A stretch of DNA of 34,936 nt from Spirochaetaceae bacterium (GCA_017936345.1 JAGBFT010000068.1:1-34936), one strand, 5' to 3'; positions 4,173 to 25,193 are shown, numbered from the stretch's first letter. Numbers and translations are program-made. Notes: generated from the letters alone by a model not told the origin.

Positions 4173-4179
4173 GGTTTGC

Positions 4180-9436: not shown

Positions 9437-10725
9437 TGTCTGTATTAAAGATGGGACTTCGTTCTCTGCTGTATAGAAGAAAACAATACGTTGCCTTGTT
9501 TTGGGTATGTGTGGTTGGAGTGGGAATCTCTCTTTTCTGTCTCTTTCTTGTGGAGGGAATGCTTGATTCTCTGGAGGGTAAGGCCAGATTATACTATGGT
9601 GGAGACTTTACCTTTATTGGTGGACAAAACGACCTTACTTTTGACAATGTTGATGACTTTATAAAAGAAATTGTTCCCATATTCCCCCCAGATACAGTAG
9701 TTTCTTCCCGTTTTGACTACGATGCAGACTACAGCTCCTTTTACTTTGAGGGAACTGAGGCTCGGCAGCGGGTGATTAAGGGGATTGATTTTTCCAAAGA
9801 GGTGGAACTTTTCCAGGAGTTCAACTACTTGGCTGGCAATCCCTCAAAAATGGCCGGTTCAAATGGTATTTTATTGTCAGAGCCAATTGCCAAAAATTTG
9901 GGAGTTCAGGTAGGTGACAGCATTACCTTTCTTTTAAGAACTGTGCAGGGATACACAAACACGGTGATACTGGAGGTGCAAGGAATTTTCCGTGATTCCA
10001 GCCTCTTTGGAATGTACACCTCCTACATGGATATCGATTGCTTGAGAGAAAGTTATGGGATGCCTTCTCACTGGGCAAATAGAATCTGCATATCTTTTCC
10101 AGGGAATTATACAGCGACCAAAGCCGATGTACAGGAATTCCAAGCTAGGCTGGAGCAAAAATTCACCATGTTTCCCCTGGTAGATGACAAAGAAATTTTT
10201 TATGAGCCTCTTACCACTGGTCAATTTTCAGAACCACATTATGCCCTTGTTGAGCTCTATGCAAACCTGGAAGACTTGAAGATTGTAATAGATGCAATGA
10301 ATATCATTGCTTTTTTTATAATCTGTCTCCTTGTTGTCATAATAATGGTGGGAGTGAGCAGTACCTATCGTGTTATTGTGATGAAGCGTATTAACGAAAT
10401 TGGTATTTACAAGTCCATTGGAATGAGAAGGCTTGGTATATTTTCCTTGCTTTTGTCAGAGACATCAATACTGATTTGTGTTGGTTGCTTGGTAGGCATG
10501 CTTTTTTCCTTGGCCCTGTGTCAGTTTGTTTCATTCTTCAATTTTTCGTTTATTCCAGCCTTCGATGTTTTCCTTGTAGATGGAAGACTTCTCCCAAGTT
10601 TTTCTCTTCTGCAATCACTGGGAATATCAGTGCTGGTGTATGTAACAACCACTTTTGCTGTATTGTTTTCTGTACAGAAATCAGTGAGAATGACTCCCGT
10701 GGAAGCGTTGGGAGTTACAGAGTGA
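9436..10725 (+). CDS. FtsX/MacB-type ABC transporter permease, second subunit
   Basis: A 429-residue partner permease with the same layout: N-terminal membrane helix (about 18-40), periplasmic domain, then three C-terminal helices with RINEIGIYKSIGMRRL as coupling motif. The start is the ATG at 9436 that overlaps the preceding TAA. Open frame extends further upstream but only inside the first permease gene. With the first permease it would form a LolCE-like heterodimer. It lacks the acidic insert of its partner. The only matching ATPase gene nearby is the convergent one at 12882-13604. Confidence 0.9.
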   Translation: MSVLKMGLRSLLYRRKQYVALFWVCVVGVGISLFCLFLVEGMLDSLEGKARLYYGGDFTFIGGQNDLTFDNVDDFIKEIVPIFPPDTVVSSRFDYDADYSSFYFEGTEARQRVIKGIDFSKEVELFQEFNYLAGNPSKMAGSNGILLSEPIAKNLGVQVGDSITFLLRTVQGYTNTVILEVQGIFRDSSLFGMYTSYMDIDCLRESYGMPSHWANRICISFPGNYTATKADVQEFQARLEQKFTMFPLVDDKEIFYEPLTTGQFSEPHYALVELYANLEDLKIVIDAMNIIAFFIICLLVVIIMVGVSSTYRVIVMKRINEIGIYKSIGMRRLGIFSLLLSETSILICVGCLVGMLFSLALCQFVSFFNFSFIPAFDVFLVDGRLLPSFSLLQSLGISVLVYVTTTFAVLFSVQKSVRMTPVEALGVTE

Positions 10726-10732: not shown

Positions 10733-11536
10733 ATGAAGAAAAAATTTACAATCAGTTTCTTTGTTTTAATGTTGTGTGGAGGTGTTCTTGTTTCCACCTT
10801 GATTGCGCAAACGACACAATCTTCAGAGGAACTCCTAAAACTTGCTCAAGACAACACCGCCTTCTTTGACACCGACTTTTCCGGCAGATACACTGTAGTG
10901 CAGGATAAGCCTGGTGAGGGAAAAAGTCTAACTGAAGCAATTATGTACCGCAGGGATAAAACCAATCAGTGGACAATCCTGGTAACAGGACCTGCCAATG
11001 AAAAGGGCAAGGGCTACCTTCAATCTGCGGGCAGCATTTGGTTCTACGATCCGTCTGACAAACGATTTACCTTTACCAGCGCAAAGGATAAGTTTCAAAA
11101 TACAAATGCCAATAATTCAGATTTTGCCCCCCAGTACTACTACAGGGACTACTCCATAGAATCAGCTGAACGGGTTAAACTGGGGAATTATAATTGCGTT
11201 TTGTTTGACCTTGTCGCAAAGGTTGAAAGTGTGGATTATCCACGTTTAAAGCTTTGGGTTACTGAAAACGATGGACTTGTTCGCAAGAAGGAGGATTATA
11301 GCCTTTCTGGTCAACTTTTGCGTAGCACAGCCGTTCCTTCTTACCAGGTTGTGGAGTACGCAGGGAAAAAATATTCTGTTCCAGTCAGTATGCTGATTAT
11401 GGACAACCTTAGGGGCAAGAGAATTGGTGGAAAAATACAGTATGAGCGAACCCAAATTTCTATTTCAAATGTATCTTTCTCAAAAGTTGACGATATTGTA
11501 TATACAAAACCGTATTTGGAAATGATGGGTGATTGA
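10733..11536 (+). CDS. LolA-like outer-membrane lipoprotein-sorting protein
   Basis: A 267-residue exported protein. The signal peptide is MKKKF plus a hydrophobic core ending near LIAQ at residues 22-25, with no lipobox Cys, so the product is a soluble periplasmic protein. The body has the beta-rich pattern of the LolA-like family (PF17131 type): LTEAIMYRRDKTNQWTILV, GSIWFYDPSDKRFTFTS and RLKLWVTENDGLVRKKEDY, the strands of the half-barrel that shields acyl chains in LolA. Its position after two FtsX-type permeases and before an outer-membrane protein suggests it carries the transported amphiphile across the periplasm. The next gene starts at its stop codon (TGATG). Confidence 0.85.
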   Translation: MKKKFTISFFVLMLCGGVLVSTLIAQTTQSSEELLKLAQDNTAFFDTDFSGRYTVVQDKPGEGKSLTEAIMYRRDKTNQWTILVTGPANEKGKGYLQSAGSIWFYDPSDKRFTFTSAKDKFQNTNANNSDFAPQYYYRDYSIESAERVKLGNYNCVLFDLVAKVESVDYPRLKLWVTENDGLVRKKEDYSLSGQLLRSTAVPSYQVVEYAGKKYSVPVSMLIMDNLRGKRIGGKIQYERTQISISNVSFSKVDDIVYTKPYLEMMGD

Positions 11537-12870
11537 TGAGGAAGCTGGTAGTAGCGGTAGTGTGTATGTGTCTTTGTTGGAGGGGCTTTGCGCAAGAGGA
11601 GCCTTCTCCAACAGAGGGTGACTATAGTTTTGCAGGTGAAAATGCCTTGGCAGGAGTTCTAGAAGAGCCCCCTGTAGAAGAAGCCTTTGCAGATGAAGAC
11701 CCCTTTGCCGATTTGTTTACGGTAGCGGAGGATGTGTCTGTAGAAAATCAAGAGCCTGTCACACCAAATTCTGTTGCTGCTACAGAAGAGAAGGAAGAAC
11801 CCAAAAACTTTTTTTACAAGCCTCTTACTTTTTCCGGTCACTTGGAAGCCCAAGTTGGTGTGTCGGGGGAATTTAAACAAGATGAGGCGGATGCAACAGG
11901 ATTTTTGTTGTTCAAAAATGATTTGTTTGTATCTGCACGGACCTCAAAAAATTTAGGGATGAGCGGAACCTTGACGATTCAATATCCAGATTTTTCTCTG
12001 TTTGTCAAATCCCTTTATTTTGACTACTTGTTGCTGGACAAGGTATACGTTTCGGGCGGAAAGAAAACCATCAATTGGGGATATGTTCAGTTGTTCAGTG
12101 ATATGTCCATCTTTACCTTTGACTTCCATTATGAGTTGACCCAAGAAAAAAAATACATCCCCACAAATATTTTATCGGATAGCGGCAGCATGATTTCACT
12201 CCATGTTCAAGTTCCTGTTTGGACAGGTACTGTCAGTGGCGTAATGTTGTATCCCACAGGGAGGAAGTCAGTCCCCAGTATCCATGACTTTACCTTTGCT
12301 GGTTCTGTGGAAATGACAGTCTGGGAAACAGCCGTCAATGTTTTTGGACGAAAAAATCCCTCTGCTGAAAGTGAGCTGTCCCAAAATGGAGCTTATAAAC
12401 CTCCTGTTTTGGGAATGGAATTTAAAAGAACCCTGCTGGGCAACGATGTGTATGGTCAGGTTGTAGTGGCTGTACAGGACTTTAAATCCTTGGAAAGTCA
12501 AGCTGGATATGAATCTGTGGTTTCCACCGCAGGATTTTATAGGTACTGGGACGGAATTATACCCAAGGTGGGAATTAACCTTGAATATCAGCACGTGTAT
12601 ACACCTGGGGGAGGACGGATTCATACCCATAAAACCGCTTTTTTAGGCGGCTTGTCCGGGTTTGGCTCAAAAAAGAACATGAGATTCGCCCTTGCTTGGA
12701 ACCACGAGTATATGACGGATGATGGTAATTTAAAGCTGGGCTTTACGGTAAGCAATGTTCTGCCCCATGCAAACTGGAATGCTGGATTGGAAATGGTCTA
12801 TGGGGGAGAATTTTCTCCTGTGCCAAAGTTTACCCTTGCAACATCAGTGACATTGTTGATGGATTATTGA
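11536..12870 (+). CDS. outer-membrane beta-barrel-like protein with acidic N-terminal segment
   Basis: A 444-residue exported protein. The signal peptide ends at about residue 20 (RGFAQ). It is followed by about 70 residues very rich in Glu/Asp/Pro (EEPPVEEAFADEDPFADLF) and then a C-terminal domain of about 350 residues made of alternating amphipathic strands with many aromatic residues and Gly, ending in FTLATSVTLLMDY. A terminal aromatic residue is usual for outer-membrane barrels. The acidic segment contains DLFTVAEDVS, close to DLFSSAEDVS in the first permease. The ATG at 11536 overlaps the previous stop by one base. A TTG one codon earlier is possible. Probable role: outer-membrane acceptor or channel of this export system. 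I recognise no named family. Confidence 0.75.
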   Translation: MRKLVVAVVCMCLCWRGFAQEEPSPTEGDYSFAGENALAGVLEEPPVEEAFADEDPFADLFTVAEDVSVENQEPVTPNSVAATEEKEEPKNFFYKPLTFSGHLEAQVGVSGEFKQDEADATGFLLFKNDLFVSARTSKNLGMSGTLTIQYPDFSLFVKSLYFDYLLLDKVYVSGGKKTINWGYVQLFSDMSIFTFDFHYELTQEKKYIPTNILSDSGSMISLHVQVPVWTGTVSGVMLYPTGRKSVPSIHDFTFAGSVEMTVWETAVNVFGRKNPSAESELSQNGAYKPPVLGMEFKRTLLGNDVYGQVVVAVQDFKSLESQAGYESVVSTAGFYRYWDGIIPKVGINLEYQHVYTPGGGRIHTHKTAFLGGLSGFGSKKNMRFALAWNHEYMTDDGNLKLGFTVSNVLPHANWNAGLEMVYGGEFSPVPKFTLATSVTLLMDY

Positions 12871-12881
12871 GTGGTCTTAGG

Positions 12882-13604
12882 CTACTGAATCATTCCGTCT
12901 TTGATTTTTATGACGTGGTTGGACATTCCAACAATCTTTGCATCGTGAGTTGAAAAAATAAAGGTTGTATTCAGCTCCTTATTCAACCTTTGCATCAGCT
13001 CTAGAATTTGGTCACCCGTTTTGGAGTCCAGGTTTGCGGTGGGCTCATCTGCCAGAATGATGGGAGCCTTTGTCACAAGAGCCCGGGCAATTGCTGTTCT
13101 CTGCCTCTGGCCACCACTCAGCTCCGATGGAGTGTGTTTTTCCCAGTCTGTAAGACCTGTTGTCTCAAGGAGATAATCAATCCACTGGTTGATTTCAGTC
13201 TTGGACATAGAATCCTTGGCGGGTGAATTCCCCAAGTGAAGGGGAAGGGCAATGTTCTCCCGCACATTTAAAACAGGGATAAGGTTAAAGGTTTGAAAGA
13301 CAAACCCCAACTGGGTCCGACGCAGGTCTGTAAGGCTTGTATCCAGTTTGAGCGGAACCTTTGTCTTAACATCCAGTTTAACATCCTTATAAACATCAAT
13401 ACCATTGAGAATAACTGTGCCAGAGGTGGGCATATCAGTAAGCCCAATAACATTCAGCAGTGTGGATTTTCCCGAACCAGAAGGCCCTGATATAGCTGCA
13501 AATTCTCCCGCCTCAATGGAAAATGATGCCTCCCTTACTGCATGAACCTGCACCTTGTCCATTTGATATGTTTTGCTGACATTTCTCAATTCAACGATGA
13601 CCAT
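12882..13604 (-). CDS. LolD/MacB-type ABC transporter ATP-binding protein
   Basis: A 240-residue ATPase. Walker A is GPSGSGKST (residues 40-48), followed by Q-loop FVFQTFNLIP, signature LSGGQRQR, Walker B IILADEP and H-loop STHD, all intact. The FNLIPVLNVRENIALPL pattern is typical of the LolD/MacB/FtsE branch that energises FtsX-type permeases, so it very likely powers the two permeases encoded at 7997-10725, although it is transcribed toward them from the opposite strand. The ATG at 13604 has no Shine-Dalgarno but lies six bases after a TATACT -10. A TTG 18 codons upstream would add a hydrophobic extension unlike the family and would fall within the promoter. Confidence 0.9.
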   Translation of the reverse strand: MVIVELRNVSKTYQMDKVQVHAVREASFSIEAGEFAAISGPSGSGKSTLLNVIGLTDMPTSGTVILNGIDVYKDVKLDVKTKVPLKLDTSLTDLRRTQLGFVFQTFNLIPVLNVRENIALPLHLGNSPAKDSMSKTEINQWIDYLLETTGLTDWEKHTPSELSGGQRQRTAIARALVTKAPIILADEPTANLDSKTGDQILELMQRLNKELNTTFIFSTHDAKIVGMSNHVIKIKDGMIQ

Positions 13605-13707: not shown

Positions 13708-13736
13708 TTGACATATTGGAAATTCCGTGAGAGAAT
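13708..13736 (+). promoter_or_regulatory. promoter of sialidase operon 1 (shared module, copy 1)
   Basis: TTGACA (13708-13713), a 17-base spacer, GAGAAT (13731-13736). The spacer contains the short palindrome GGAAATTCC. The block TGGAAATTCCGTGAGAGAAT is identical in the promoter of operon 2 at 21762-21781. Confidence 0.7.
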
Positions 13737-13771
13737 AATCTTGTATGCAAGTAGTTGTATACAAGATTATT
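13734..13771 (+). promoter_or_regulatory. long hairpin/palindrome between promoter and RBS of operon 1
   Basis: Arms AATAATCTTGTATGC (13734-13748) and GTATACAAGATTATT (13757-13771) pair over 15 bp with one G-T wobble around the 8-base loop AAGTAGTT. It starts at the -10 and ends eight bases before AGGAGG (13779-13784). The same structure with compensating base changes occurs at 21776-21818. It could act as a DNA operator or as a 5' mRNA stem; the sequence alone does not decide. Confidence 0.75.
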
Positions 13772-13790
13772 TTGATCCAGGAGGAATGGG

Positions 13791-14876
13791 ATGAGAAAAA
13801 AAATCTTTTTGCTGGTTCTGTTGACAAGTTGTGCGATTAGTTTGTTTGGACAAAACAGAGATATTGATATTTCGAGTGAAAATATAGGGGGGGGGTATAA
13901 CAGCCTTGTATTAAGCTTTGAGGCAAATACCGGAAGACTGTCTGATGATACGGACGGCGGCCCCTTTTCCGGGAATGCCTTTGATTTTGCTGCTGAGGGA
14001 AGCCACACCTTTGGTTCCCTTCCATGGCTTTCCCTGTACGGAAAAATAGATTTCCGCTCATCGATTAATGTAAATAATGAAAATTTAAGATCTAAGTATC
14101 CTGATGAGGATAAAACTAAACATCCTAATATTTATCCCATTTATATGATGAACGGCACAACAGGTTCAAGTTTTGGGCTGAATTATATTGACCTGGGTGC
14201 TCGTCTTGGTGGTTGGGGTTCTGTTGGATTCCGCCACAACCTGCTCCTCAAAGGGGAGGCTCGCATTCCGCTGACCATCCAGTTGTTGGGTTCTTCCGAT
14301 GAACCCACATTTGCCATTAACGGGAACGGCATGAAACTTGCTGTTGCTCCTAGTGGTGGAAATCCTGTATCTATCTCTGTTGCCCTTTATGGTGGTATTA
14401 ACGCTTTCCCATACCGTATCGGCAAATGGTGGGATGTTCTTCCTGGAGACAAGGTTGGAGTGGATGCAGCTGGGGAAAGAGGTAAAGCAAATGAACCTTC
14501 TATTACAGACTTGTATGGTGGTATTACCATTTCTACCAGCTTTGGCTGGACAGATGTTCCTGTTGTGGAAGATTTTGGTTTAGCCTTAGATGCTAGTTGG
14601 CATACCAATGGTAATACCATTAAGGATAATAGCAATGCAGGTTATACACCATGGGATTGTGATTCTGCGGAAGCCCTTAAGTACAACGGGTTTTTGAGAG
14701 CTCAGGCAACTCTTTCTTATGCACCGAACAGTAAATTCTCTGCTTATGCTCGCTGTAGATATGAATACACCAATATTTTGCCAACTCCTCAAGGAACATA
14801 TTCTATTCGTGACAGAATGCTTCATGATTTTTATGTAATGGCCGGTGTGTCCTACAAGCTTGGAGGTGAAAAATGA
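13791..14876 (+). CDS. phase-variable outer-membrane barrel-like protein, first gene of sialidase operon 1 (ON)
   Basis: A 361-residue exported protein with a signal peptide to about residue 20 (SLFGQ), followed by a Gly/aromatic-rich beta-strand pattern through to FYVMAGVSYKLGGEK, as in outer-membrane barrels. No named family is recognised. Codons 33-35 are three GGG codons in a run of nine G. At nine the frame is intact. At ten the next codons are GTA TAA, and at eight a TAA follows within six codons, so either slip ends translation near residue 35-40. The start follows AGGAGG by six bases. The stop overlaps the sialidase start (ATGA), so loss of translation here may also lower the downstream genes. 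Likely role: surface protein or porin for released sugars (inference). Confidence 0.75.
   Translation: MRKKIFLLVLLTSCAISLFGQNRDIDISSENIGGGYNSLVLSFEANTGRLSDDTDGGPFSGNAFDFAAEGSHTFGSLPWLSLYGKIDFRSSINVNNENLRSKYPDEDKTKHPNIYPIYMMNGTTGSSFGLNYIDLGARLGGWGSVGFRHNLLLKGEARIPLTIQLLGSSDEPTFAINGNGMKLAVAPSGGNPVSISVALYGGINAFPYRIGKWWDVLPGDKVGVDAAGERGKANEPSITDLYGGITISTSFGWTDVPVVEDFGLALDASWHTNGNTIKDNSNAGYTPWDCDSAEALKYNGFLRAQATLSYAPNSKFSAYARCRYEYTNILPTPQGTYSIRDRMLHDFYVMAGVSYKLGGEK
13887..13895 (+). repeat. poly-G tract (9 G) in the operon 1 lead gene
   Basis: Nine consecutive G encode Gly33-Gly35, just after the signal peptide. In-frame at nine. Slipped-strand change by one base in either direction leads to an immediate stop. 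Equivalent in length to the tract at 21897-21905. Confidence 0.9.
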
Positions 14877-16765
14877 TTTTTTTTAAGAAAAAAATAGCTA
14901 TAAGAACCCTCATCGCAGTTGGATTGGTAACTTTCGTGGCTGGTTGCTACAATGTAAGTTACGAGATTCTTGAAGTAACTACCCTGGCTACTAGTGCTAA
15001 AAAGGTTTTTAAGTCTTTGGGGGAAGTTGTTTTGTTTGAAAAAAACAATGGACAGGTAATGATTCAAGATAATGAAGATACAGCAGAGAATCTTGAATCC
15101 ATTGAATACAACAATGGGTTGCGTATTCCTACATCTGTTCTTATTCCTGCTGGTGCCGTATTGCCCAACGGTCAGAGAGTTGGTTCTCAGGGGCGTTTAG
15201 TTGCAGTAGGTGATGCCCGCTGGACTGGTAACAGCGACCTTCCTCAGAAGGCATCTGCCTGGTTACGGTACAGTGACGATGGTGGCAAGAACTGGAGTAA
15301 ACCTCAACTTGCAGTCCACTTTGATGACTACGATATGAGTACTGCAAGTGGATTGACTATGGATGGTGTAGTTACAGGAGATCCCACCATTGGTCGTACA
15401 GCAACTAATCGTCTCATTATGTTGAGTACATTTGGTGGAACTTCCACAGGAAACTGGACAGGTGGATGGTCAAATCGGGGGGATGGGCTCAATCAACCGG
15501 GAGATGCTTATTTTCAAGTTGGCAACTCAACCAATGACTGGAATGACACACAACATTATCTGAGACTGAGAAAAAATACTAAGGAATATTTTGATAAAGA
15601 TGATACATCATTGGAACCTGGAACAGACCCGGATATGGATGGAAAGTATACGGAACCAAAATCTGATGGAGAAGTGTATACTGGTGATTGGATGGCTGAA
15701 GAGTTTCCAGCAACTAATGACAACTACTGCTATTATGTAGATGTAAGAGGTGGAGAAATTAAGAAAGCATCTGCTAATGGGACTTGTGATCCTGAAAGTG
15801 ACCCAGGAACAGGGCTTTTTGTGGATGAAAATTATTTCTTGTATTTGGATAGACATTTTGAACATAAGTTCATGGTTAAACAGTTAAAGAAAGAGGGAGG
15901 AGTTGTTAAAAAAGGGGAAAAAGATGTTCATTGTCATTTGTTTATGGGCTTGTCTCCCTATCAGGTATGGAGAGGTTGTACATTTATTGGTATGAGTTAC
16001 AGTGACGATGGTGGAGTTACATGGAGTCCCCATCGTGATATAACTTACATGGTACGCCCGAAAGAACATTCCGATAGAACGAATCGTTATTTCTTTGTAA
16101 GCCCTTGTGGAGGATACCTTCATGATGGGATGAGTGATGAAGTGGCTGAAAAACAAGGTGGAAATAATCGTCTTTTATTTAGTGCCTACTGTAGTGCTGA
16201 AGCCCCTGTAGTATTCTGGACAGATGATAATGGAGAAACATGGGAACATGCAACAGATGGAGGAAAAGGAGATCAGTATATGGGTAATTCTTCTTCTTCT
16301 GAAACTACCATTGTAGGTCACCCTGATGGTGTTCTTATTGCTATTTCCAGAGGGACACCACCCCAGTGGGCAGTGTCTTTGGATGGTGGCGTAACCTGGC
16401 AACCCAAAGGAAACTTTAGAGATATTCTCCCTGAAGTAAGCGGAAGAAACCTTATGAGTGCCGTTGTCTTGGATTGGACAACAAACACAGCAGGAGATAC
16501 TCTAATTGCATTGAGTGCTGCATGTAGTGCTGGTAATGATCGTAAGAATGGGCATGTTTTTATTCTCTCAATAGAACCTGATGGTAGTGGTAGTTACACT
16601 TTGAATCCAGCATGGAATGGTACTACTGTAAAATCATCGGTTCATACTGGTGATTACGCTTATTCTTCTGTATGTGAACTTGCCAACGGTGATTTGGCCG
16701 TATTCTTTGAGGGGGAAAGTTCAAATTACCTTTTAAAGTTTGTGGATGTAACACATAACGACTAG
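14873..16765 (+). CDS. exo-alpha-sialidase lipoprotein (GH33), operon 1
   Basis: A 630-residue lipoprotein. The signal peptide ends in the lipobox VAGC, acylated Cys25, so it is membrane-anchored and probably surface-exposed. It has the GH33 marks: RIP motif (R84-I-P), candidate acid/base Asp114 in VAVGDARW, and four Asp-boxes, SDDGGKNW (134-141), SDDGGVTW (377-384), TDDNGETW (450-457) and SLDGGVTW (502-509). The C-terminal YAYSSVCELANGDLAVFFE carries the nucleophile Tyr and the terminal Glu. A loop of about 200 residues rich in Asp, Tyr and Cys between Asp-boxes 1 and 2 is large for the family. It should release terminal sialic acid from glycoconjugates. GGAGG precedes the ATG, which overlaps the previous stop. 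It is followed by a terminator-like hairpin. Confidence 0.9.
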   Translation: MIFFKKKIAIRTLIAVGLVTFVAGCYNVSYEILEVTTLATSAKKVFKSLGEVVLFEKNNGQVMIQDNEDTAENLESIEYNNGLRIPTSVLIPAGAVLPNGQRVGSQGRLVAVGDARWTGNSDLPQKASAWLRYSDDGGKNWSKPQLAVHFDDYDMSTASGLTMDGVVTGDPTIGRTATNRLIMLSTFGGTSTGNWTGGWSNRGDGLNQPGDAYFQVGNSTNDWNDTQHYLRLRKNTKEYFDKDDTSLEPGTDPDMDGKYTEPKSDGEVYTGDWMAEEFPATNDNYCYYVDVRGGEIKKASANGTCDPESDPGTGLFVDENYFLYLDRHFEHKFMVKQLKKEGGVVKKGEKDVHCHLFMGLSPYQVWRGCTFIGMSYSDDGGVTWSPHRDITYMVRPKEHSDRTNRYFFVSPCGGYLHDGMSDEVAEKQGGNNRLLFSAYCSAEAPVVFWTDDNGETWEHATDGGKGDQYMGNSSSSETTIVGHPDGVLIAISRGTPPQWAVSLDGGVTWQPKGNFRDILPEVSGRNLMSAVVLDWTTNTAGDTLIALSAACSAGNDRKNGHVFILSIEPDGSGSYTLNPAWNGTTVKSSVHTGDYAYSSVCELANGDLAVFFEGESSNYLLKFVDVTHND

Positions 16766-16769
16766 GTTT

Positions 16770-16810
16770 TGTTCCGTTCAGCCTCGCTAAGGGTTGGACG
16801 GAACATTTTT
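16770..16810 (+). terminator. operon-internal intrinsic terminator
   Basis: Arms TGTTCCGTTCAGCC (16770-16783) and GGTTGGACGGAACA (16792-16805) form a 14-bp stem with two G-T wobbles and an 8-base loop, followed by TTTTT. It lies right after the sialidase stop and inside operon 1, so it probably reduces rather than ends transcription into the three genes beyond. Confidence 0.75.
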
Positions 16811-16864
16811 AGGGAGTGTTTTAGAAAGTCGACTTGTTCGTTGGCTTTTTTATGGGAGATTGAA

Positions 16865-17977
16865 ATGAAAATATTTCTACATAAATTAACAGTATCTTGT
16901 ATGTTCTGTACAATGGTAGTCTGCTTTGCACTTGCCGGTTGTCAGGATGTAGTACGGAGAGTAGATGATAAATATCGCCCTGTAAAAGAACCTGGTTCTG
17001 TAACAGTGCTTGCTGACAGAGCTGATGATTTAGGGGTTCCTATTCAGATAAAAAATTTGAGTGTTGATGAATTAGAGTTAAAAGTTTCTTCCAGTGATAA
17101 TTCTCCAGTACCTTTTGTTCCCATTCTTGAGGAAGGTGTACAGTCTGGTTTTGGGCGTATCACAATAACACCTCCTAGCAATGATGAACCCTTTGGAAAT
17201 TTTACTGCAGTAATTGATGTATGTTCAAAAGAAACTGGAGAAGTATACGATAGTTATGAGTACACCGCCGACAGGTATCCCTACCGGATTTATCAGGTGG
17301 GTAATGAAACCTACAAGTTCGAGCTGGTAAAAATGTTTCACTTTGAACAGAATCGTGGCAATTTTGGAGCTGCCGTGGGAGGTGGAGATGGAATAGTGTC
17401 TCTTTTTACTGGCAATAATGATGAGAATAAGGATGTCAACGAGAAGGGAAGCACTGTTACCATCAAAGACACCAACACTGATAGCCAGAAAGGTACGGGA
17501 TTGACCTTTTATTACAATACCAGCGATACTGGGCAATTCAAGCAAGACCAGTATAACTATGTGGAAATTAAATTCAAATCGGGAGAAACACAGACTCCCG
17601 AATTTGCCTTGTTAGGAGAAGCTGCGGGTGGAGGAAAGTTCGGCTTCTGGTATGATGGGGGATGTATTGGTGCTGGAGAGGGGATTCAAGTGTCAAGTTT
17701 TAGGGTGAACGATTTCTCTTCTCTGTTGCCAGCCCACAGCAGTAGTAGCATTGATTTGACTTATGATGACAGTAGTACCGACTGGTGTGTAATCGGATTT
17801 CACAATAGAAAAGATGGAAAATGCTTGTTTACTGAGAATCTTGAAAACGCAACAGAAAAGACACTGAGTTCAACAAAAGACTTTGACTTTACCAAAGACT
17901 ATACGGTTTTTTATGTGGGACCTGGATCAACGTTGGAAATCGACTACATCGCCTTTTTCAAGCGAGTTGAACAATAG
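16865..17977 (+). CDS. beta-rich lipoprotein of unknown family in sialidase operon 1
   Basis: A 370-residue lipoprotein. The signal peptide ends at CFALAGC (LAGC lipobox). I do not recognise a family. The N-terminal third reads like an Ig-type beta sandwich (VTVLADRADDLGVPIQIKNLSV ... GRITITPP). The C-terminal two thirds look like a jelly-roll, ending in GSTLEIDYIAFF, a pattern seen in carbohydrate-binding modules, so a glycan-binding role fits the context. GGGAG before the ATG at 16865 fixes the start. An upstream in-frame extension would run through the terminator hairpin and lacks a signal sequence. Composition is AT-rich like the sialidase gene and unlike the two esterase genes downstream. 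Likely co-transcribed with them, ten bases apart. Confidence 0.7.
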   Translation: MKIFLHKLTVSCMFCTMVVCFALAGCQDVVRRVDDKYRPVKEPGSVTVLADRADDLGVPIQIKNLSVDELELKVSSSDNSPVPFVPILEEGVQSGFGRITITPPSNDEPFGNFTAVIDVCSKETGEVYDSYEYTADRYPYRIYQVGNETYKFELVKMFHFEQNRGNFGAAVGGGDGIVSLFTGNNDENKDVNEKGSTVTIKDTNTDSQKGTGLTFYYNTSDTGQFKQDQYNYVEIKFKSGETQTPEFALLGEAAGGGKFGFWYDGGCIGAGEGIQVSSFRVNDFSSLLPAHSSSSIDLTYDDSSTDWCVIGFHNRKDGKCLFTENLENATEKTLSSTKDFDFTKDYTVFYVGPGSTLEIDYIAFFKRVEQ

Positions 17978-17986
17978 GAGATTGCC

Positions 17987-19786
17987 ATGAAACGAATTCT
18001 AAAAGATTCGGCAAAGTGTATTTTTGTTTTCTGCTTTTTTGTGGGGCAGCTGCTTGGATGTTCACAAGAGGCTACCTTGGACAATACGGAAGGTGTTGGC
18101 GATGGAGTTGTAGCTCCAGTCTTGCCATTCCAGCAGCTGGTGACCTTTGCTTCTGGGGACAGCCAGCATCACGTCACCAAGGATTTTTCCCTGAGTCTGG
18201 ACAATGGCAGCTGGACTTCCAGCGATACCAGCGTCCTTTCGGTTGATTCCTCAGGCAGGGCAATTATAAAAGAGTATAGTGGGGGAGGATATTCCCGTGA
18301 TATTGAGCTCCGTAACGAGAGGGGTGGGGCTGCCGTGGTGACCGTGCGCTATCCACTGCCCCACGATGGCGTAGGCTACGACAAGCTCACCCTTCACGGA
18401 AAGTTCCGCAGCTACCGCCCGGACACCACTCGGGGAGACAGCATGACACACTGGTGTAGCGGAGAGTTGCTGAATGATGGCTCCACCTGTGCGGACTGTC
18501 CCAACGAGGACCGCTGCATTCCAGAGGGTGCAATCGTAGGTGGTGTGGAATATCCCACCTACTGGAGCCGTCTGCCCCTGTCCATCCATGCAGACAACCA
18601 CGATACCACCAAGGGCTTGTATGCCATTCAGGACAAGGGGACATCAGCTATCTTCCCTAACAATCAGCAGGGTCTGGGTGACAGAGCGGACAACAATATG
18701 AGGCAGTGTACCGCCGGTGTGTACATCGCCTTTGAGACTGACAGTACGAGCATCACCGTGGATGCGGAATATCTCCATTCTTCATCTACCAATGTTACCA
18801 ACGGACGAGCCTTCAGCGGGCTTGACCTGTACAGCAATGAGGGCAGCGGGTGGGTTTACAAGCATACCTTCAAAGACAACGACAAAGATGCCGTTCTGGA
18901 CGCAACTTATTCCTCGGCATCAGGAAAGATGACCAGCTACATCCTGATGCTGCCCACCTACAACGGCTTTGAATTCGGCAAGGAAGAAAACCCCAGTGGT
19001 CTGAAGCTTTTGTTCAGCGAGGGTGCAACTACCTACGAGATAGACCCATTCAACGAGCAGGTGCAAAAGCCCATCCTCATCTACGGAACCAGCATCACCC
19101 AGGGAGACGGTGCCAGTGGCTTGCGTCCCGGCGCCACCTACGCTGCCCAAATCATGTGGGCAACAGGCCGGGAGGTCATCAACATGGGTGTGGCTGGCTC
19201 CGCCCAGATGGAGTACAAGATGGCGGATTTCCTCTCTCAGATTGAAAGCGAGGTATTCGTCATTGACCCGGGCTGGAACTTGACCAGCACCTCCCTTGCT
19301 GCTACCTATTGCAATGCGAATGGTGACGCTGCTGCCATTACAAATGAGGAAGTTGTAAAGCGTGCTAAATACATGGTGGAAACGTATCGTAAGAAGCATC
19401 CGAATACACCCATCATCCTGTGTCCCAAATATCTGAAAAGCAATAACGTGGGTTCCATGGCCTCTACCAAATCTCCTGATACGATAGATATGCCGGTCAG
19501 TTTCGACAACACGGAGAACTATCTGTATGGACGTGAGAGCTTCCTTTTGTACAAGGCATTTCTGGAGCTACAGGCTGACGGTGTAAACAACCTGTACTGG
19601 GCGGAGCAGGGGGTGCCTGGAAATGAAAGTGGTCAGCCCACCAACACTGAAAATTTATTGTATGGTACTGACCTGCACCCGCCCATCCAGGGGATGACGG
19701 ACATTGCAAACTTTATCCTGCCAGCAATTACCGAGGCGGCTCCCCACGTGTATAGCGGGGGAAAGGTTTCCGTTCCAAGCAACTAA
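17987..19786 (+). CDS. SGNH/GDSL-type esterase lipoprotein
   Basis: A 599-residue lipoprotein (lipobox LLGC at about residue 25). After a short linker there is a bacterial Ig-like segment (about 40-120), a Cys-rich beta domain (about 130-350, including CADCPNEDRC) and a C-terminal SGNH hydrolase domain. The latter has nucleophile Ser369 in GTSITQG, the Gly block NMGVAGSAQ, IDPGWN for the Asn block, and DLHPP with candidate Asp562 and His564. The Asp-His spacing is DxH rather than the usual DxxH. Family members remove acyl, often acetyl, groups from sugars. Beside sialidases, a sialate O-acetylesterase-type role is the reasonable inference. GGAG precedes the ATG. From about 18120 the codon use becomes distinctly GC-rich, unlike the genes before it. 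Confidence 0.82.
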   Translation: MKRILKDSAKCIFVFCFFVGQLLGCSQEATLDNTEGVGDGVVAPVLPFQQLVTFASGDSQHHVTKDFSLSLDNGSWTSSDTSVLSVDSSGRAIIKEYSGGGYSRDIELRNERGGAAVVTVRYPLPHDGVGYDKLTLHGKFRSYRPDTTRGDSMTHWCSGELLNDGSTCADCPNEDRCIPEGAIVGGVEYPTYWSRLPLSIHADNHDTTKGLYAIQDKGTSAIFPNNQQGLGDRADNNMRQCTAGVYIAFETDSTSITVDAEYLHSSSTNVTNGRAFSGLDLYSNEGSGWVYKHTFKDNDKDAVLDATYSSASGKMTSYILMLPTYNGFEFGKEENPSGLKLLFSEGATTYEIDPFNEQVQKPILIYGTSITQGDGASGLRPGATYAAQIMWATGREVINMGVAGSAQMEYKMADFLSQIESEVFVIDPGWNLTSTSLAATYCNANGDAAAITNEEVVKRAKYMVETYRKKHPNTPIILCPKYLKSNNVGSMASTKSPDTIDMPVSFDNTENYLYGRESFLLYKAFLELQADGVNNLYWAEQGVPGNESGQPTNTENLLYGTDLHPPIQGMTDIANFILPAITEAAPHVYSGGKVSVPSN

Positions 19787-19801
19787 GGGGGTGAAAAGAT
19801 T

Positions 19802-21670
19802 ATGTCCAAGCTGAAGATATGTTTTTTTGCCACATTGATGGGCTTTGTCCTGCTGTTTGCCGGCGGATGCAAGACCGATGTGGAGCCAGCTTCAAGCAAG
19901 GGGAAGGAAGATGCCAAGACTCCTGTCCCTGTTTTGATAAGCTATGATTCCAGAGAATTGACCTGTTGTATAGATGAGGGGGTAGCAGTGCCAGGCTCTA
20001 CCGTCATGTCTGGGACGGAACTGACAATTATTCCAGCAGAGGGTGAGCCAGTGTTGTTCCTCACTGCCAACGGTCTGCCCTTGCCCTACTCTGGTGACGC
20101 TGCTACAATAACACTCCCGGACACCAGCCCCACGATGGAGCTGAAGGTGGAGAAACGGCAGGCTCTGGCGGAAGAAGCGGGACAGTACAATGTCCGCATT
20201 CTCTTTGGTGGTGAGGCAACCTTCCCCGTCTCCACAACGGAAAGGATTGACAATCTGTTCACTCAATTCAATTCGTACTTCAGCAAGGGGTCCTCCGACC
20301 GCTGGCAGGACTTCAAGCTTTGTAACGGTGCTTATCTGTCCAGTGGCAAGGGCTACAAGGACTGGCTGGACTCTTCCTACAGCGAGACCTTTGCACAGGC
20401 TCCCCATGCTGTTGTGGTAAGCTTGGGGCTTGCTGAACTTGAGGCGGAAAGCTTTGATGAGACAGCCTTTGCCTCTTGGTGTGCTGGCATCCTTTCGGGC
20501 TATGGGCGTGCTAGACCTGGGGCCGTTGTTGTCGCGGTGGGACTTCCTCCCTTGGCTATACTTCCCAGTGTGGAGAAATCCCGCTATGAGGCGGTGGACA
20601 GGGCAATTCGCAGTGCAGTTCGTTCCTCGGGGGCAATTCTGGTGGATGTGGCTGGTCTCTACGCTACTGACCCCAACCTTGCCTCCGATGCCACCAAGGC
20701 AAAGCGTCGTATTACCGAAGAAATCTTTCTGTCTTTCTATAGCAGGATTGAGGCACAGGCGGGCAACCCGGGAGACATGATGATTGATGGCAAGCCCATC
20801 ACCACTACGCCCCGCCAAAAGTGGAGCGGGACCGATGACGGAAACCAGGACACGGCCAAGAGGGAGCTGATTCAGACCATTGCAAGCGGGGACAAGACCA
20901 AGTGGCCCCAGGTTGTCTTCATTGGAGACAGCATCACCGATTTTTATGACGGAACCTACGATAACGACAGCAGAAAATTGAAGATGACCGACTGGTGGAA
21001 CAAGAACGTGGGCTGGGGCAACAACAAGGTTTTGGATGAATCCGGCTCCGCTGCCACCTATCGTGCCTTGAATCTGGGCAATTCCGGCGACTTTACCCAG
21101 TCCCTGCTGTACCGCCTCCAGAAGATTCCTGGGGACGATGGTTCCGGAGCCTATACCGGTGCCTTCCAGTTCAAGGACACGGTAAAGGCTGTGGTGCTGA
21201 TGATTGGAACCAACAACATCGGTGTCAGCAGTCCCAGTAGTACCGCTGTAGGCAACACCAAGTATCAGGAGCGTCCCATCAGCACGGTGGAGGCGGTGAA
21301 GGGCATTCAGGCTGTCATCGGTGTGCTGAAAAAAGGTTTCCCAAATGCCAAGATAATCCTTATGGGTGTCCTTCCAAGGGGAACAAAAACCCAAAGAGAC
21401 GATGTGGACTTTATCCGTCTGCAAGTACTTTCTACCAACCGCCAGCTGTATGACTTGTACGGCTCAGGGCAGGATTCCAGGGTGCAGCTGCTGGATTTGT
21501 ACGAGAACTTTGTGGACTCTGCCGGTGTTCAGAAGAGTGGAAGCTTGGAGGCTCTGGGAGATGTGGGGACTTGTGACAAGCTCTTCTTTGACACAGTTCA
21601 CCCTAACAACGCTGGGTATAAGGTGTGGTGGGACAATCTAAAACCTATTTTGGATGTTATTTTACAGTAA
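19802..21670 (+). CDS. lipoprotein with degenerate plus intact SGNH hydrolase domains
   Basis: A 622-residue lipoprotein (lipobox AGGC near residue 23). Domains: linker; small beta domain (about 40-115); an SGNH-like fold (about 120-320) that keeps the strand order (VRILFGGEA, AVVVSLGLAELE, VVVAVGLPPLA, ILVDVAGLY) but lacks the nucleophile Ser and the DxxH; then a complete SGNH domain (about 365-622) with Ser377 in GDSITD, NLGNSGD, GTNN and Asp597-Thr-Val-His600. The first copy may be a binding or scaffold domain. The intact one should deacylate a carbohydrate, perhaps O-acetyl sialic acid (inference). GGGGGTG precedes the ATG. The last 15 coding bases are part of the 80-bp repeat found again at 25114-25193. 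Confidence 0.83.
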   Translation: MSKLKICFFATLMGFVLLFAGGCKTDVEPASSKGKEDAKTPVPVLISYDSRELTCCIDEGVAVPGSTVMSGTELTIIPAEGEPVLFLTANGLPLPYSGDAATITLPDTSPTMELKVEKRQALAEEAGQYNVRILFGGEATFPVSTTERIDNLFTQFNSYFSKGSSDRWQDFKLCNGAYLSSGKGYKDWLDSSYSETFAQAPHAVVVSLGLAELEAESFDETAFASWCAGILSGYGRARPGAVVVAVGLPPLAILPSVEKSRYEAVDRAIRSAVRSSGAILVDVAGLYATDPNLASDATKAKRRITEEIFLSFYSRIEAQAGNPGDMMIDGKPITTTPRQKWSGTDDGNQDTAKRELIQTIASGDKTKWPQVVFIGDSITDFYDGTYDNDSRKLKMTDWWNKNVGWGNNKVLDESGSAATYRALNLGNSGDFTQSLLYRLQKIPGDDGSGAYTGAFQFKDTVKAVVLMIGTNNIGVSSPSSTAVGNTKYQERPISTVEAVKGIQAVIGVLKKGFPNAKIILMGVLPRGTKTQRDDVDFIRLQVLSTNRQLYDLYGSGQDSRVQLLDLYENFVDSAGVQKSGSLEALGDVGTCDKLFFDTVHPNNAGYKVWWDNLKPILDVILQ

Positions 21671-21735
21671 CATAAATTCTTTTCTTCCTTCCTAGTTTTG
21701 GCTGACCAGGAACATCTTCTTGGTCAGCCTTTTTT
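21656..21735 (+). repeat. 80-bp direct repeat, copy 1
   Basis: 79 of 80 bases match 25114-25193 (A at 21664, G at 25122). This copy covers the last five codons of the SGNH gene including the stop, and the terminator. The two copies bracket sialidase operon 2, with 3,458 bases from the end of one to the end of the other. Confidence 0.95.
21700..21735 (+). terminator. intrinsic terminator of sialidase operon 1
   Basis: Arms GGCTGACCAGGAA and TTCTTGGTCAGCC pair over 13 bp with one wobble around CATC, followed by six T. Identical to the terminator of operon 2. Confidence 0.92.
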
Positions 21736-21752
21736 AAATCAGAAAATTTAAT

Positions 21753-21781
21753 TTGACAAAATGGAAATTCCGTGAGAGAAT
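21753..21781 (+). promoter_or_regulatory. promoter of sialidase operon 2 (shared module, copy 2)
   Basis: TTGACA (21753-21758), a 17-base spacer ending in the same block as copy 1, and GAGAAT (21776-21781). Spacing and sequence match the operon 1 promoter. Confidence 0.7.
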
Positions 21782-21818
21782 TATCTTGTATGCAAGATGA
21801 TGTATACAAGATAATCTC
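21776..21818 (+). promoter_or_regulatory. long hairpin/palindrome between promoter and RBS of operon 2
   Basis: ATTATCTTGTATGC (21780-21793) pairs with GTATACAAGATAAT (21802-21815) around AAGATGAT. Three further pairs (GAG with CTC) extend it across one bulged A. Compared with operon 1, an A-T pair has become T-A on both arms, a compensatory change that argues the pairing itself is under selection. Confidence 0.75.
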
Positions 21819-21837
21819 AATTCAGGAGGAACATGAA

Positions 21838-23552
21838 ATGAAGAAGTTTGGAAGAATAATATATTATTCTTTATTATGTAGTGTTTTAGTTATATTGGGG
21901 GGGGGTGTAAACAAGAACCCTCTATAACGAAGCCCGAAGGAATTCGGGTGGACAATCCTTCAAATCAGCCAGGTGGAACAGGAGAAGAGGATTCCGTACC
22001 TGGAACTGATGGAGAAGTAAATGTTGTAATAGGTAATCCAGAAAAAGTATATAAAATTCCTGCCAATTTTAAAGATAATCTGAATAGTACAGAAAAAGAA
22101 GTGTCTGTTTGGAACAATGTGGCAAATACCCAACAAAGTGATATTTTAGGGCGTAATTATTCAATATTATTGGGTGACAATCCCAAAACTGATGGATACG
22201 TCATAAGCGGTTCAGCCACAGAGGAAAGGACTAACTTAAGTACAGGTCCAGGCTCATACCGTATCCCTGCTATAACAAAGGCCGTTGTGAACAATCAAGT
22301 GCGGTTGATTGCGGCATTTGATGTCCGTTATCGAGGGGGACACGATGGTGGAGGTGATACGGGGGCGGCGGCAAATGGTGGCAGCGATATCACTATCATG
22401 TATAGTGATGACGGTGGTGCAACGTGGACAGCAGCTAAGAATAAGGATACAGGAAAAAAACCTGCAATTGATGTGAAGAATCTCTACAATGACCGTGGCC
22501 TAGGTGATGGAACCCCAAGTCCGACTGATACATTTGATGTTTGTGATCCTCAACTTTCTGTGGCTCCTGATGGTATAGTGTATTGTGGTATGGCTGCTGG
22601 AAATGGGACTATTGGAACTGCTGGTGGCGGACCAAATTTCCGTATGTGGAAGAGTACTGATAATGGTGAGACATGGGAAGAGGTGGAAGGTTCCAGTGGA
22701 GATGGAACAACTGGAATCTTCAAGACTTGGAGCATTGAAGAAAGCAATGGGCTTTTGACCACTCCAGGTCACGGAATCATCCTTACAAAGGATGTCCCTG
22801 GTTCCAGCAATTTTACCAAGGGTAGAATGGTCATGCCAGTTTTTCAAAAACAAAAGAGTAATTCTGGAAATATTTTCAGGATGTATTTGGCAACTGGTAC
22901 TGGCAAGCCAGAAACTTGGGATAGCAGTACTTTTTCTGCCCCCTTCACAAGAAATTATGGTGTTGAGGAGGGGCAGATATGCCAGCTGGATGACGGTAGT
23001 CTGCTGATGTTTGCCAAGACATATGCTACTTCTGGCTCTGGCCAAGATGCCGTTGGTAGGTTTACTTTGTTCAAAGACAATAAATGGAATGAGGTGCATG
23101 AGTCGGATCAAAAGTTGATTGGCGGACAGTCTGGACAGGGAAGTATCCTGAAGGTTGCGGAGGGGGACGGTGATACAAAGGCAGGTGTTATTGCCTTCGC
23201 CTACACTGGGCAGAAGACCCAAAACCGGAACAATGGAAACTGGGGAAACATAGGGCGTGGAGATATTACAATCGCATTGACTCGGGATGTTAGTGCTTTG
23301 AACAGTAATGGTGAGCCACTTGATTCGGAAAGAGTATATTATCTCAAGATTCGAACCCCTCGTCAGGGTTATTTTGGGTACACGGATATGGTGATGATTG
23401 ATGACAAGACCCTTGGAATCTTGTATGAAAACTATAGTGGTGAAAAAGATTCTAATAAGGGAGACTTGGCACCAGATGGAACCAATGCTGTGAATGGTAT
23501 GAGGTTTTGTCGCATAGATATTGGTGAAATCATCAAAGATTTGCAGAACTAA
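21838..23552 (+). CDS. phase-variable exo-alpha-sialidase lipoprotein (GH33), operon 2; OFF as sequenced
   Basis: AGGAGGA (21824-21830) precedes ATG 21838. The signal peptide runs to a run of nine G; as sequenced the frame then stops at TAA 21925-21927. Adding one G (or removing two) joins it to the open frame running to 23552 and creates a lipobox Cys (LGGGC with ten G, LGGC with seven), giving about 571 residues. The restored body is a GH33 sialidase: SYRIP (about base 22258), Asp in AAFDVRY, Asp-boxes SDDGGATW and STDNGETW, and C-terminal GYTDMVMI with LGILYEN (Tyr nucleophile and Glu). The enzyme core is undamaged, which favours reversible switching over decay. A GTG at 21948 could start a leaderless-sequence cytoplasmic form but would lack the export signal. 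Confidence 0.87.
21897..21905 (+). repeat. poly-G tract (9 G) at the lipobox of sialidase 2
   Basis: Nine G directly before the TGT codon of the predicted lipidated Cys. Nine gives a stop 20 bases later; eight gives GTG TAA at once; ten or seven gives the full sialidase frame. Confidence 0.92.
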
Positions 23553-23625
23553 TCACCTTACTTTTTCTTGAATGACAGACAGTTGTTTTTGCCTGTCATT
23601 CTACTTTCATTACAGGAGAAACATA

Positions 23626-25098
23626 ATGAAGTATGTGGCCAAGAGATTTTTATTTTTTTCTTTGAGTTTTTTTCTTGTGAGTATACTGATTGCTCAACCA
23701 GCCTCACCTATGCACGAGGGAACCAATGGGTTGTTCGGTAATGATACTGATAGTGTAACTAGTACCACAGGCTGGAGTAGTGTGGATTTTGATAAATTTC
23801 TGTTCACTGGTGCGTATGGATATGTGCAGATTGATAGCTCAAATACAGGAGCCCTCATATTAAAAACACATATGTTGAATTTGGCAGGAATGTTCAAAAT
23901 GGGAAACTTGACACTTGGTCTTTCTTACCAAGGAGCATTGGGAGGGAATACTAGTAAAGGAATCTCATTTTCCAATAACATGAATGGTGACAGTAAGATA
24001 TCAACAAGTTCTTTCCCTCTTTTCCATAATATACGCTTGCTTGTTGGTATTCCGATGAATTCTGGTATGAATTTAGGGATTCGTGCTGGTGTTGACTTTG
24101 GGGGTGAAGTAGGAAAAACTAGTATGGACTCCCCAAAGACTTTGGCAGATTTGCGGAGTTACACTCGGACAGATACCTTTTCCTACAAGCCCCAGTTTTC
24201 TGTTGGAACCTCATTTGGTGTGGGAGATTATACCTTTACGCCAACCCTAGATTTTTCGTTGAGTAGCGTCAATGGTACTTCTGTCGGTCAAAGCTCAACT
24301 TCTGGATACCATTTAGGACCGATTGAGGCAGAAGATGGAAGTGTGTATGAGGCAAGTAGAAAGATACGTACGTATACACCTGCCTTTACCTTGGGTTTGA
24401 ATGTGGGGCTACCTTCTGACAACGAGGCAATCTCATGGAGCAGCAAGGTATCCTACGGATTTAGTGCAACTGTCCAGCCGGAAAAGTCTGAATATACGTA
24501 TGCTTATAATGGGCCATCAAAAACTTATACCGAGCTTTTGCATACTTATCGTCCAGACAAGATGTTTGCCCATACTGTTGCACTCAATATCGTGGGGTCT
24601 AAGATTGTGTCGCCTCGCCTCACGGTAAAGGGAAAGGCTCAGTTTGATGTAAGCTATACGGATTCATTGAGTGGAGGTACAACCAAGATTGATGGAACAG
24701 GGACTCCAGTGCAGTCAACCAGGACAAAGAATATCTATTTGGCCCCAGTGGTTTCTCTTGCCGCCAATGTGCAACTTTCAGAAATGGTGAACTGGTATAC
24801 GGGACTAGTTTGTATTCCTGTACGGTACACAACGACAAATACACGCAATTATGCCGAGTCTGGCATCGTTGTAGCTGGAAAGAGTGAGACTAAGTCTGTG
24901 ACGCACAACATCCACTATCCTATCATCAGTCAGTTTGGAACAGGAGTGCAGGTGCAGCCAGCGGATGAACTGACCATTTCTTTCGGGCTTCTCTTCGGCT
25001 CATCATCTGAACAGATTGAGCTTACAACCATCAGTTCCGTCCTGAGCAACGCCAACATCCGGCTGGGCTTGATCTGGAAAGATGTTCCCGACAAGTAA
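23626..25098 (+). CDS. outer-membrane barrel-like protein, second gene of sialidase operon 2
   Basis: A 490-residue exported protein with a signal peptide to about residue 24 (SILIAQ). The remainder shows alternating amphipathic beta strands with Gly/aromatic enrichment (LNLAGMFKMGNLTLGLSYQGALGG, FSVGTSFGVGDYTFTPTLDFSLSS, ELTISFGLLFGSSSEQIEL) and a final strand IRLGLIWKDVPDK. This suggests an outer-membrane barrel. No named family is recognised, and similarity to the operon 1 barrel-like protein is not obvious by eye. AGGAGA before ATG 23626 fixes the start. It lies 73 bases after the sialidase stop, across a 9-bp hairpin that lacks a T-run, so the two genes are likely co-transcribed. It ends shortly before the second copy of the 80-bp repeat. 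Confidence 0.75.
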   Translation: MKYVAKRFLFFSLSFFLVSILIAQPASPMHEGTNGLFGNDTDSVTSTTGWSSVDFDKFLFTGAYGYVQIDSSNTGALILKTHMLNLAGMFKMGNLTLGLSYQGALGGNTSKGISFSNNMNGDSKISTSSFPLFHNIRLLVGIPMNSGMNLGIRAGVDFGGEVGKTSMDSPKTLADLRSYTRTDTFSYKPQFSVGTSFGVGDYTFTPTLDFSLSSVNGTSVGQSSTSGYHLGPIEAEDGSVYEASRKIRTYTPAFTLGLNVGLPSDNEAISWSSKVSYGFSATVQPEKSEYTYAYNGPSKTYTELLHTYRPDKMFAHTVALNIVGSKIVSPRLTVKGKAQFDVSYTDSLSGGTTKIDGTGTPVQSTRTKNIYLAPVVSLAANVQLSEMVNWYTGLVCIPVRYTTTNTRNYAESGIVVAGKSETKSVTHNIHYPIISQFGTGVQVQPADELTISFGLLFGSSSEQIELTTISSVLSNANIRLGLIWKDVPDK

Positions 25099-25113
25099 TG
25101 CTTTCTGACACAG

Positions 25114-25193
25114 GTTATTTTGCAGTAACATAAATTCTTTTCTTCCTTCCTAGTTTTGGCTGACCAGGAACATCTTCTTGGTCAGCCTTTTTT
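25114..25193 (+). repeat. 80-bp direct repeat, copy 2
   Basis: Matches 21656-21735 in 79/80 bases. Here the part corresponding to the SGNH coding end (GTTATTTTGCAGTAA) is non-coding, so it is a relic of a duplicated SGNH gene 3' end. Confidence 0.95.
25158..25193 (+). terminator. intrinsic terminator of sialidase operon 2
   Basis: Same 13-bp stem, CATC loop and six T as at 21700-21735. Confidence 0.92.

What the first reader, a model, noticed from the sequence alone, without database searches (positions are those of the whole stretch)
13708..25193. Twin, phase-switchable sialidase operons in a spirochaete: a candidate sialoglycan-processing system
Two adjacent operons encode two GH33 sialidase lipoproteins, two outer-membrane barrel-like proteins, two SGNH-esterase lipoproteins and one beta-rich, possibly glycan-binding lipoprotein. 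All have export signals. The set parallels, in logic but not in parts, the surface glycan loci of Bacteroidetes (surface enzyme plus outer-membrane pore). There is no SusC/SusD. Esterases beside sialidases suggest removal of O-acetyl groups that block sialidase. The first gene of each operon carries a 9-G tract, so the system can vary between ON/OFF combinations.
Basis: partly seen in the sequence, partly recalled or inferred. Interest (0 to 1): 0.88.

Follow-up and report, generated by a model that had tools for sequence, protein, structure and literature searches.

The report
Switchable sialidase–barrel regulon in a treponeme
A host-associated spirochaete carries at least five separately switchable gene units, each pairing an exported enzyme that clips sialic acid off host sugars with an outer-membrane barrel, and all five carry a DNA site also found at its sialic-acid-eating operon, so a population could hold many mixtures of cells that do or do not forage host sialic acid.

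Summary
The window has two adjacent operons: op1 (barrel A, GH33 sialidase, unknown lipoprotein, two SGNH esterase lipoproteins) and op2 (GH33 lipoprotein, barrel B). Each first gene has a G9 tract. op1 is in frame (ON). op2 is out of frame (OFF); G10 would restore it. The same draft genome holds three more GH33+barrel units elsewhere. All five have a G or C tract of 9-10 within ~100 nt of the start codon and one shared operator-like site, CTTGTATRC-N8-GTATACAAG. A congener has four orthologues plus an op1-like copy, with different tract lengths and ON/OFF states. OFF genes remain under purifying selection. The half-site also sits at the -10/+1 of a genus-wide nan operon (GntR-FCD regulator, ABC transporter, NanA-like lyase, AGE epimerase), suggesting one sialic-acid regulon. 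op2 is a cassette behind op1, between 80-nt direct repeats of op1's 3' end. Best reading: phase-variable sialic-acid scavenging with sialidase and cognate outer-membrane pore. Switching, operator binding, barrel transport and esterase substrate are inferred, not shown.

The parts
13708..13736 (+). op1 promoter: TTGACA, 17 nt, GAGAAT
   Evidence: Consensus scan; similar element before all ten units.
13740..13765 (+). op1 operator-like inverted repeat CTTGTATGCAAGTAGTTGTATACAAG
   Evidence: Genome search: the five GH33 units plus one 2-mismatch stray; reversed-pattern control gives none in this genome.
13791..14876 (+). op1 gene 1: barrel A, 361 aa, signal peptide; in frame (ON) at G9
   Evidence: amphipathic excess z 2.9; four homologues; no family match.
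13887..13895 (+). G9 tract, 96 nt after the start codon; ON at 6, 9, 12
14873..16765 (+). op1 gene 2: GH33a sialidase lipoprotein, 630 aa; start overlaps barrel A stop by 4 nt (ATGA)
   Evidence: R84, R116, D122, E477, R493, R557, Y597 invariant in five homologues.
16770..16805 (+). terminator-like hairpin (15 pairs, T-run) between GH33a and the lipoprotein; possible attenuator
   Evidence: consensus match only.
16865..17977 (+). op1 gene 3: lipoprotein of unknown fold, 370 aa
   Evidence: Lipobox LAGC; two congener homologues 35-42% identical; no Pfam, NCBIfam or PDB match.
17987..19786 (+). op1 gene 4: SGNH esterase lipoprotein (GxDLY + Lipase_GDSL_3), 599 aa
   Evidence: PF14606 6e-27, PF14607 5e-13; PDB 4lhs 7e-13.
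19802..21670 (+). op1 gene 5: SGNH esterase lipoprotein, 622 aa, catalytic domain at residues 373-608
   Evidence: PF13472 2e-19.
21656..21735 (+). left copy of 80-nt direct repeat: op1 3' end and terminator (stem 21700-21729)
21753..21781 (+). op2 promoter, same -35/-10 as op1
   Evidence: op1/op2 upstream regions 81% identical, op2 against its orthologue 65%.
21785..21810 (+). op2 operator-like inverted repeat CTTGTATGCAAGATGATGTATACAAG
21839..23552 (+). op2 gene 1: GH33b sialidase lipoprotein; OFF at G9 (stop after 29 codons), about 570 aa at G7/G10/G13; one arginine of the catalytic triad is lysine
21897..21905 (+). G9 tract 59 nt after the start; encodes the Gly run just before the lipid-attachment Cys (LGGGC at G10)
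23626..25098 (+). op2 gene 2: barrel B, 490 aa, TDE2508-type outer-membrane beta-barrel
25114..25193 (+). right copy of 80-nt direct repeat with the same terminator (25158-25187), 79 of 80 identical

Best explanation
This is part of a multi-locus, phase-variable sialic-acid scavenging regulon. Each unit makes an exported GH33 sialidase and an outer-membrane beta-barrel. A GntR/FCD regulator encoded beside the nan operon most likely binds CTTGTATAC/GTATACAAG sites that overlap the transcription start and couples the units to sialic acid. Slipped-strand changes in the G or C tract near the start of each first gene turn each unit ON or OFF on its own. The sialidase frees sialic acid, the barrel admits it (or sialo-oligosaccharide) to the periplasm, and an ABC transporter, NanA-like lyase and AGE epimerase (the Bacteroides fragilis-type route; no NanE) lead to GlcNAc and on to NagA. 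The SGNH esterases in op1 probably remove acyl groups that hinder sialidase. Shown by sequence: gene families, five units, tracts, shared inverted repeat, nan operon, frame states, purifying selection on OFF genes. Inferred: actual switching, regulator binding, barrel transport, surface location, esterase substrate, silencing of downstream genes through lost translational coupling.
For: Five GH33 genes at four contigs, each beside a barrel. All five carry the operator-like site; the only other hit has 2 mismatches. All five carry a tract of 9-10 in the first gene; co-location P about 7e-14. Congener G024 has five units with tracts G11, G10, G10, G11, C10 and a different ON/OFF pattern. Genes OFF in one or both assemblies are full length beyond the tract and constrained, pN/pS 0.17-0.39. 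nan operon found: GntR-FCD, SBP, two permeases, NanA-like (best NCBIfam models are N-acetylneuraminate lyases, 223 bits but below the 281 cut-off) and GlcNAc 2-epimerase; NanA in 8 of 10 congeners; NanE in none. CTTGTAT half-site at -10/+1 of the nan promoter in six genomes, a perfect palindrome in G036. Seven catalytic residues kept in GH33a. nagA lies close to the C55 unit.
Against: No reads or expression data: tract lengths are assembly consensus. No binding data for the operator; each nan-promoter match is individually modest (P 0.002-0.024), and the inverted repeat also folds as a stable 5' RNA hairpin. Barrel A has no family match. The nan operon is present in congeners without GH33a/b, so the sialidases are an add-on. 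GH33b has Lys in place of one triad Arg. Draft genome 75% complete.
Confidence: 0.62

Rival explanations
1. The units serve host interaction rather than feeding: surface sialidases strip sialic acid from host proteins (complement, mucin, receptors), and switching hides immunogenic surface proteins.
For: A dual-domain bacterial sialidase is reported to protect from complement killing by desialylation (abstract of PMC10553830; from general knowledge this is T. denticola TDE0471); the C47 GH33 is a distant relative of that family (110 bits against NF052328). Tract switching of surface proteins is typical of immune evasion, as in T. pallidum Tpr proteins (PMC10600179).
Against: The shared half-site and the nan operon tie the units to sialic-acid use. 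The two roles do not exclude each other.
Confidence: 0.25
2. The tracts are ordinary G runs or assembly errors, and the out-of-frame genes are pseudogenes; no phase variation.
For: Poly-G count in the window alone is not above chance; the genome is a fragmented draft.
Against: Ten of ten units in two species carry a tract of 9-11 at the same place; co-location P about 7e-14; OFF genes have no other lesion and are under purifying selection.
Confidence: 0.08
3. The 26-bp inverted repeat is an mRNA 5' hairpin controlling stability or translation, not a repressor operator.
For: The element folds well as RNA, -8.5 to -13.2 kcal/mol, z about -5 to -6.7.
Against: The sequence itself, not only the pairing, is conserved; most nan promoters carry the half-site without the full hairpin; in one congener unit the repeat is tripled.
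Confidence: 0.15

Closest known systems
Bacteroides fragilis nan system (NanO/NanU, AGE-type NanE-II, RokA; PMC10017367)
   Same: Outer-membrane entry, lyase plus AGE epimerase route.
   Different: Here the outer-membrane proteins are not SusC/SusD (no such family match), inner uptake is an ABC transporter, and the units are scattered and tract-switched.
E. coli nanCMS / NanC sialoporin (KdgM family; PMC10017367)
   Same: A barrel gene heads the operon, with an esterase in it; sialic-acid-linked control by a GntR-type regulator (last point from general knowledge).
   Different: Barrels A/B are larger and not KdgM members (one homologue matches PF06178 only at E 0.22).
Treponema denticola TDE0471 sialidase (NF052328)
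   Same: Treponemal exported GH33; C47 GH33 scores 110 bits.
   Different: Far below the 900-bit equivalog cut-off; GH33a 19 bits; GH33b no match.
Gardnerella NanH3 slipped-strand sialidase (cited in PMC11868660)
   Same: Sialidase reported as phase-variable by a simple repeat.
   Different: One gene in an actinobacterium, against five units with a shared operator-like site here.
Treponema pallidum phase-variable outer-membrane proteins (tpr; PMC7864442, PMC10600179)
   Same: Homopolymeric G tracts and outer-membrane proteins in a treponeme.
   Different: Here tracts lie inside reading frames of enzyme-plus-barrel units; no sialidase link found there.

Membership tests
GH33 sialidase (GH33a, window 14873-16765) | RIP Arg, second and third triad Arg, acid/base Asp, Glu, nucleophile Tyr, Asp boxes | tested here: met
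   All invariant in five homologues; BNR 5e-10; PDB sialidases to 1.9e-21. Activity not tested.
GH33 sialidase (GH33b, window 21839-23552) | Same catalytic set | tested here: inconclusive
   RIP Arg, D-x-R, Asp, Glu341, R437, Y478 present; the Arg expected 16 residues after Glu is Lys357 in all four homologues; BNR_2 below cut-off.
Intramolecular trans-sialidase (R. gnavus NanH type) | Trp about 21 residues after the nucleophile Tyr (recalled, used as a lead) | tested here: inconclusive
   Absent in window GH33a, aligned Trp present in C55 GH33; activity not testable.
SGNH/GDSL esterase | Family match with the nucleophile-Ser block and D-x-x-H block | tested here: met
   PF14606 95 bits, PF13472 71 bits, over cut-off; GTSITQG..DLHP and GDSIT..GTNN..DTVHP in the sequences.
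Sialate O-acetylesterase (NanS/SASA, PF03629) | SASA domain match | tested here: not met
   No PF03629 hit at E up to 1. Function could still converge.
TDE2508 outer-membrane barrel (NF049865) | Score over curated cut-off | tested here: not met
   Window barrel B 62.6 bits against 125, so a relative, not a member by that cut-off; all five homologues match, best 3e-35.
SusCD-type polysaccharide utilisation locus | SusC and SusD homologues | tested here: not met
   No such Pfam or NCBIfam match among the cluster proteins.
Simple-sequence-repeat phase-variable gene | Homopolymer tract in the reading frame; tract length differs between related genomes; intact gene beyond the tract | tested here: met
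Simple-sequence-repeat phase-variable gene | Tract length varies within one population with matching expression | not testable with these tools
   No reads.
NanR-type sialic-acid regulon | GntR/FCD regulator adjacent to nan genes and shared operator | tested here: inconclusive
   GntR 76 bits, FCD 50 bits beside nan genes; half-site shared; binding untested.

The most novel reading that the evidence does not exclude
A combinatorial bet-hedging system: at least five independently switching sialidase plus outer-membrane barrel units under one sialic-acid regulator (up to 32 states), with cassettes that move behind one another, and barrels that form a third class of outer-membrane sialic-acid entry beside NanC and NanOU.
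Probability: 0.35. Interest if true: 0.78.

Novelty: new variant of a known kind. Interest (0 to 1): 0.62.

Why it matters
A review in the library counts only two outer-membrane sialic-acid uptake systems (NanC and NanOU, PMC10017367); these barrels are a testable third candidate. Phase variation is mostly discussed for antigens; here it would govern a nutrient-acquisition regulon enzyme by enzyme, and the sequence gives exact ON/OFF tract lengths that reads can check at once.

Tried and rejected
Naming the species: the genome scan left out near records and returned no spirochaete. Operator pattern with wrong spacing (9 N) in G024: discarded, repeated correctly. NanE route: rejected, absent in ten congeners. 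Homology of barrels A and B: not supported (hhalign 23%). A script that picked wrong start codons for three units was replaced. The ABC transporter beside the C47 unit (with a PdxA-like gene) was considered as a sialic-acid importer and set aside: it is on the opposite strand and nothing ties it to sialic acid.

Full report
WHAT IS THERE. The window (contig C117 of a 1.84-Mb, 75%-complete draft genome) holds two adjacent operons on the + strand. op1: barrel A (13791-14876), GH33a (14873-16765), a lipoprotein of unknown fold (ATG 16865 to 17977), and two SGNH esterase lipoproteins (17987-19786, 19802-21670). op2: GH33b (ATG 21839 to 23552) and barrel B (23626-25098). Each ends in an intrinsic-terminator-like hairpin (21700-21729, 25158-25187).

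FRAME STATES. Both first genes carry G9. In op1 it lies 96 nt after the start and is in frame: ON at 6, 9, 12. In op2 it lies 59 nt after the start and encodes the glycines in front of the lipid-attachment cysteine; at G9 translation stops after 29 codons, at G10 the product is an about 570-residue lipoprotein. So the assembly shows op1 ON, op2 OFF. In op1 the GH33a start overlaps the barrel stop (ATGA), as in two G024 copies, so a frameshift in the barrel should reduce GH33a by lost translational coupling (inference).

IT IS A REGULON. The two operons share a promoter and a 26-bp inverted repeat, CTTGTATRC-N8-GTATACAAG. Across the genome this repeat (up to 2 mismatches) occurs at five gene units and one stray; the reversed-pattern control gives none in this genome. 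All five are GH33+barrel units: the two here; C55 (barrel A type + GH33a type); C47 (barrel B type + a third GH33 related to PDB sialidases at 2e-51); C71 (GH33b type with an LRR-bearing front + barrel B type). All five first genes have a tract of 9-10 (G; C in C71). The genome has 16 tracts of 9 or more; five falling within 160 bp of five operators has probability about 7e-14. States: op1 ON, op2 OFF, C55 OFF, C47 ON, C71 OFF.

COMPARISON. In 245-274 genomes of the family, GH33a and GH33b relatives occur only in this genome and one congener, G024, apart from one distant GH33 hit. G024 (99% complete) has five units with tracts of 10-11 and states OFF, ON, ON, OFF, ON: orthologues of op1, op2, C55 and C71, plus an op1-like copy; a C47 orthologue was not searched for. 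Genes that are OFF in one or both assemblies are otherwise intact and constrained: pN/pS 0.36 for op2 GH33b (OFF in both), 0.32 for C71 GH33, 0.17 for the C55 barrel, at near-saturated synonymous sites. This argues against pseudogenes.

LINK TO SIALIC ACID. Contig C7 carries a divergent GntR/FCD regulator, a solute-binding protein, two permeases, a NanA-like lyase and a GlcNAc 2-epimerase. NanA orthologues are in 8 of 10 congeners; NanE is in none, so the route resembles the B. fragilis lyase/AGE pathway (PMC10017367). The promoter of this operon in six genomes carries the same CTTGTAT half-site directly after the -10; G036 has CTTGTATAC-TA-GTATACAAG. I take this as the likely operator of the GntR protein; the alternative, an RNA hairpin, is not excluded. 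nagA lies close to the C55 unit.

ENZYMES AND BARRELS. GH33a keeps all seven expected catalytic residues. GH33b keeps six; one triad arginine is lysine in all four homologues, so activity or specificity may differ. Barrel B is a relative of NF049865. Barrel A has no family; only the two barrels show excess alternating amphipathic segments. The SGNH proteins are not SASA-family esterases; de-O-acetylation is plausible by analogy with NanS and EstA (PMC5512079), untested.

CASSETTE MOVEMENT. op2 lies between 80-nt direct repeats (21656-21735, 25114-25193; 79 of 80 identical). The repeat is the 3' end and terminator of op1. In G024 the syntenic op1 is followed directly by the same downstream gene, with a single diverged copy and no op2; the op2 orthologue lies on another contig. 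op2's upstream region is 81% identical to op1's, 65% to its own orthologue's. So op2 genes seem to have been placed into a copy of op1's ends. The 'twin' is local and comparatively recent, and could be lost again by recombination (inference).

LIMITS. No reads, no expression, no binding data. Known precedents: a slipped-strand sialidase in Gardnerella (cited in PMC11868660) and tract switching in T. pallidum.

Noticed in passing
L050 (G000:C30) 1479-1489 and L055 (G000:C107) 4812-4822, - strand: G11 tracts lie exactly between -35 TTGACA and -10 TAGAAT (spacer 18) of two promoters, upstream of a lipoprotein and a trypsin-like secreted protease gene: likely promoter-spacer phase variation.
   Followed up: partly
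L046 (G000:C11) 1963-1973, - strand: G11 near the start of another lipoprotein gene, OFF as assembled, ON at G12.
   Followed up: no
window 21656-21735 and 25114-25193: 80-nt direct repeat flanking the op2 cassette; the congener lacks op2 at this site.
   Followed up: yes
L068 (G024:C30) 653-5145 and 8867-10237: A row of related lipoproteins (GGxLVI..PGxRA) beside the sialidase unit, one with a G9 tract just before its start codon.
   Followed up: no
L069 (G024:C71) 11217-13271: Another SGNH lipoprotein divergent from op1 in the congener.
   Followed up: no
L054 (G000:C83) 1681-5028: Type II CRISPR Cas9 (TIGR01865, 578 bits) with a G9 tract nearby.
   Followed up: no
window 16770-16805: Strong terminator-like hairpin inside op1 after GH33a, possibly limiting expression of the lipoprotein and esterases.
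   Followed up: no
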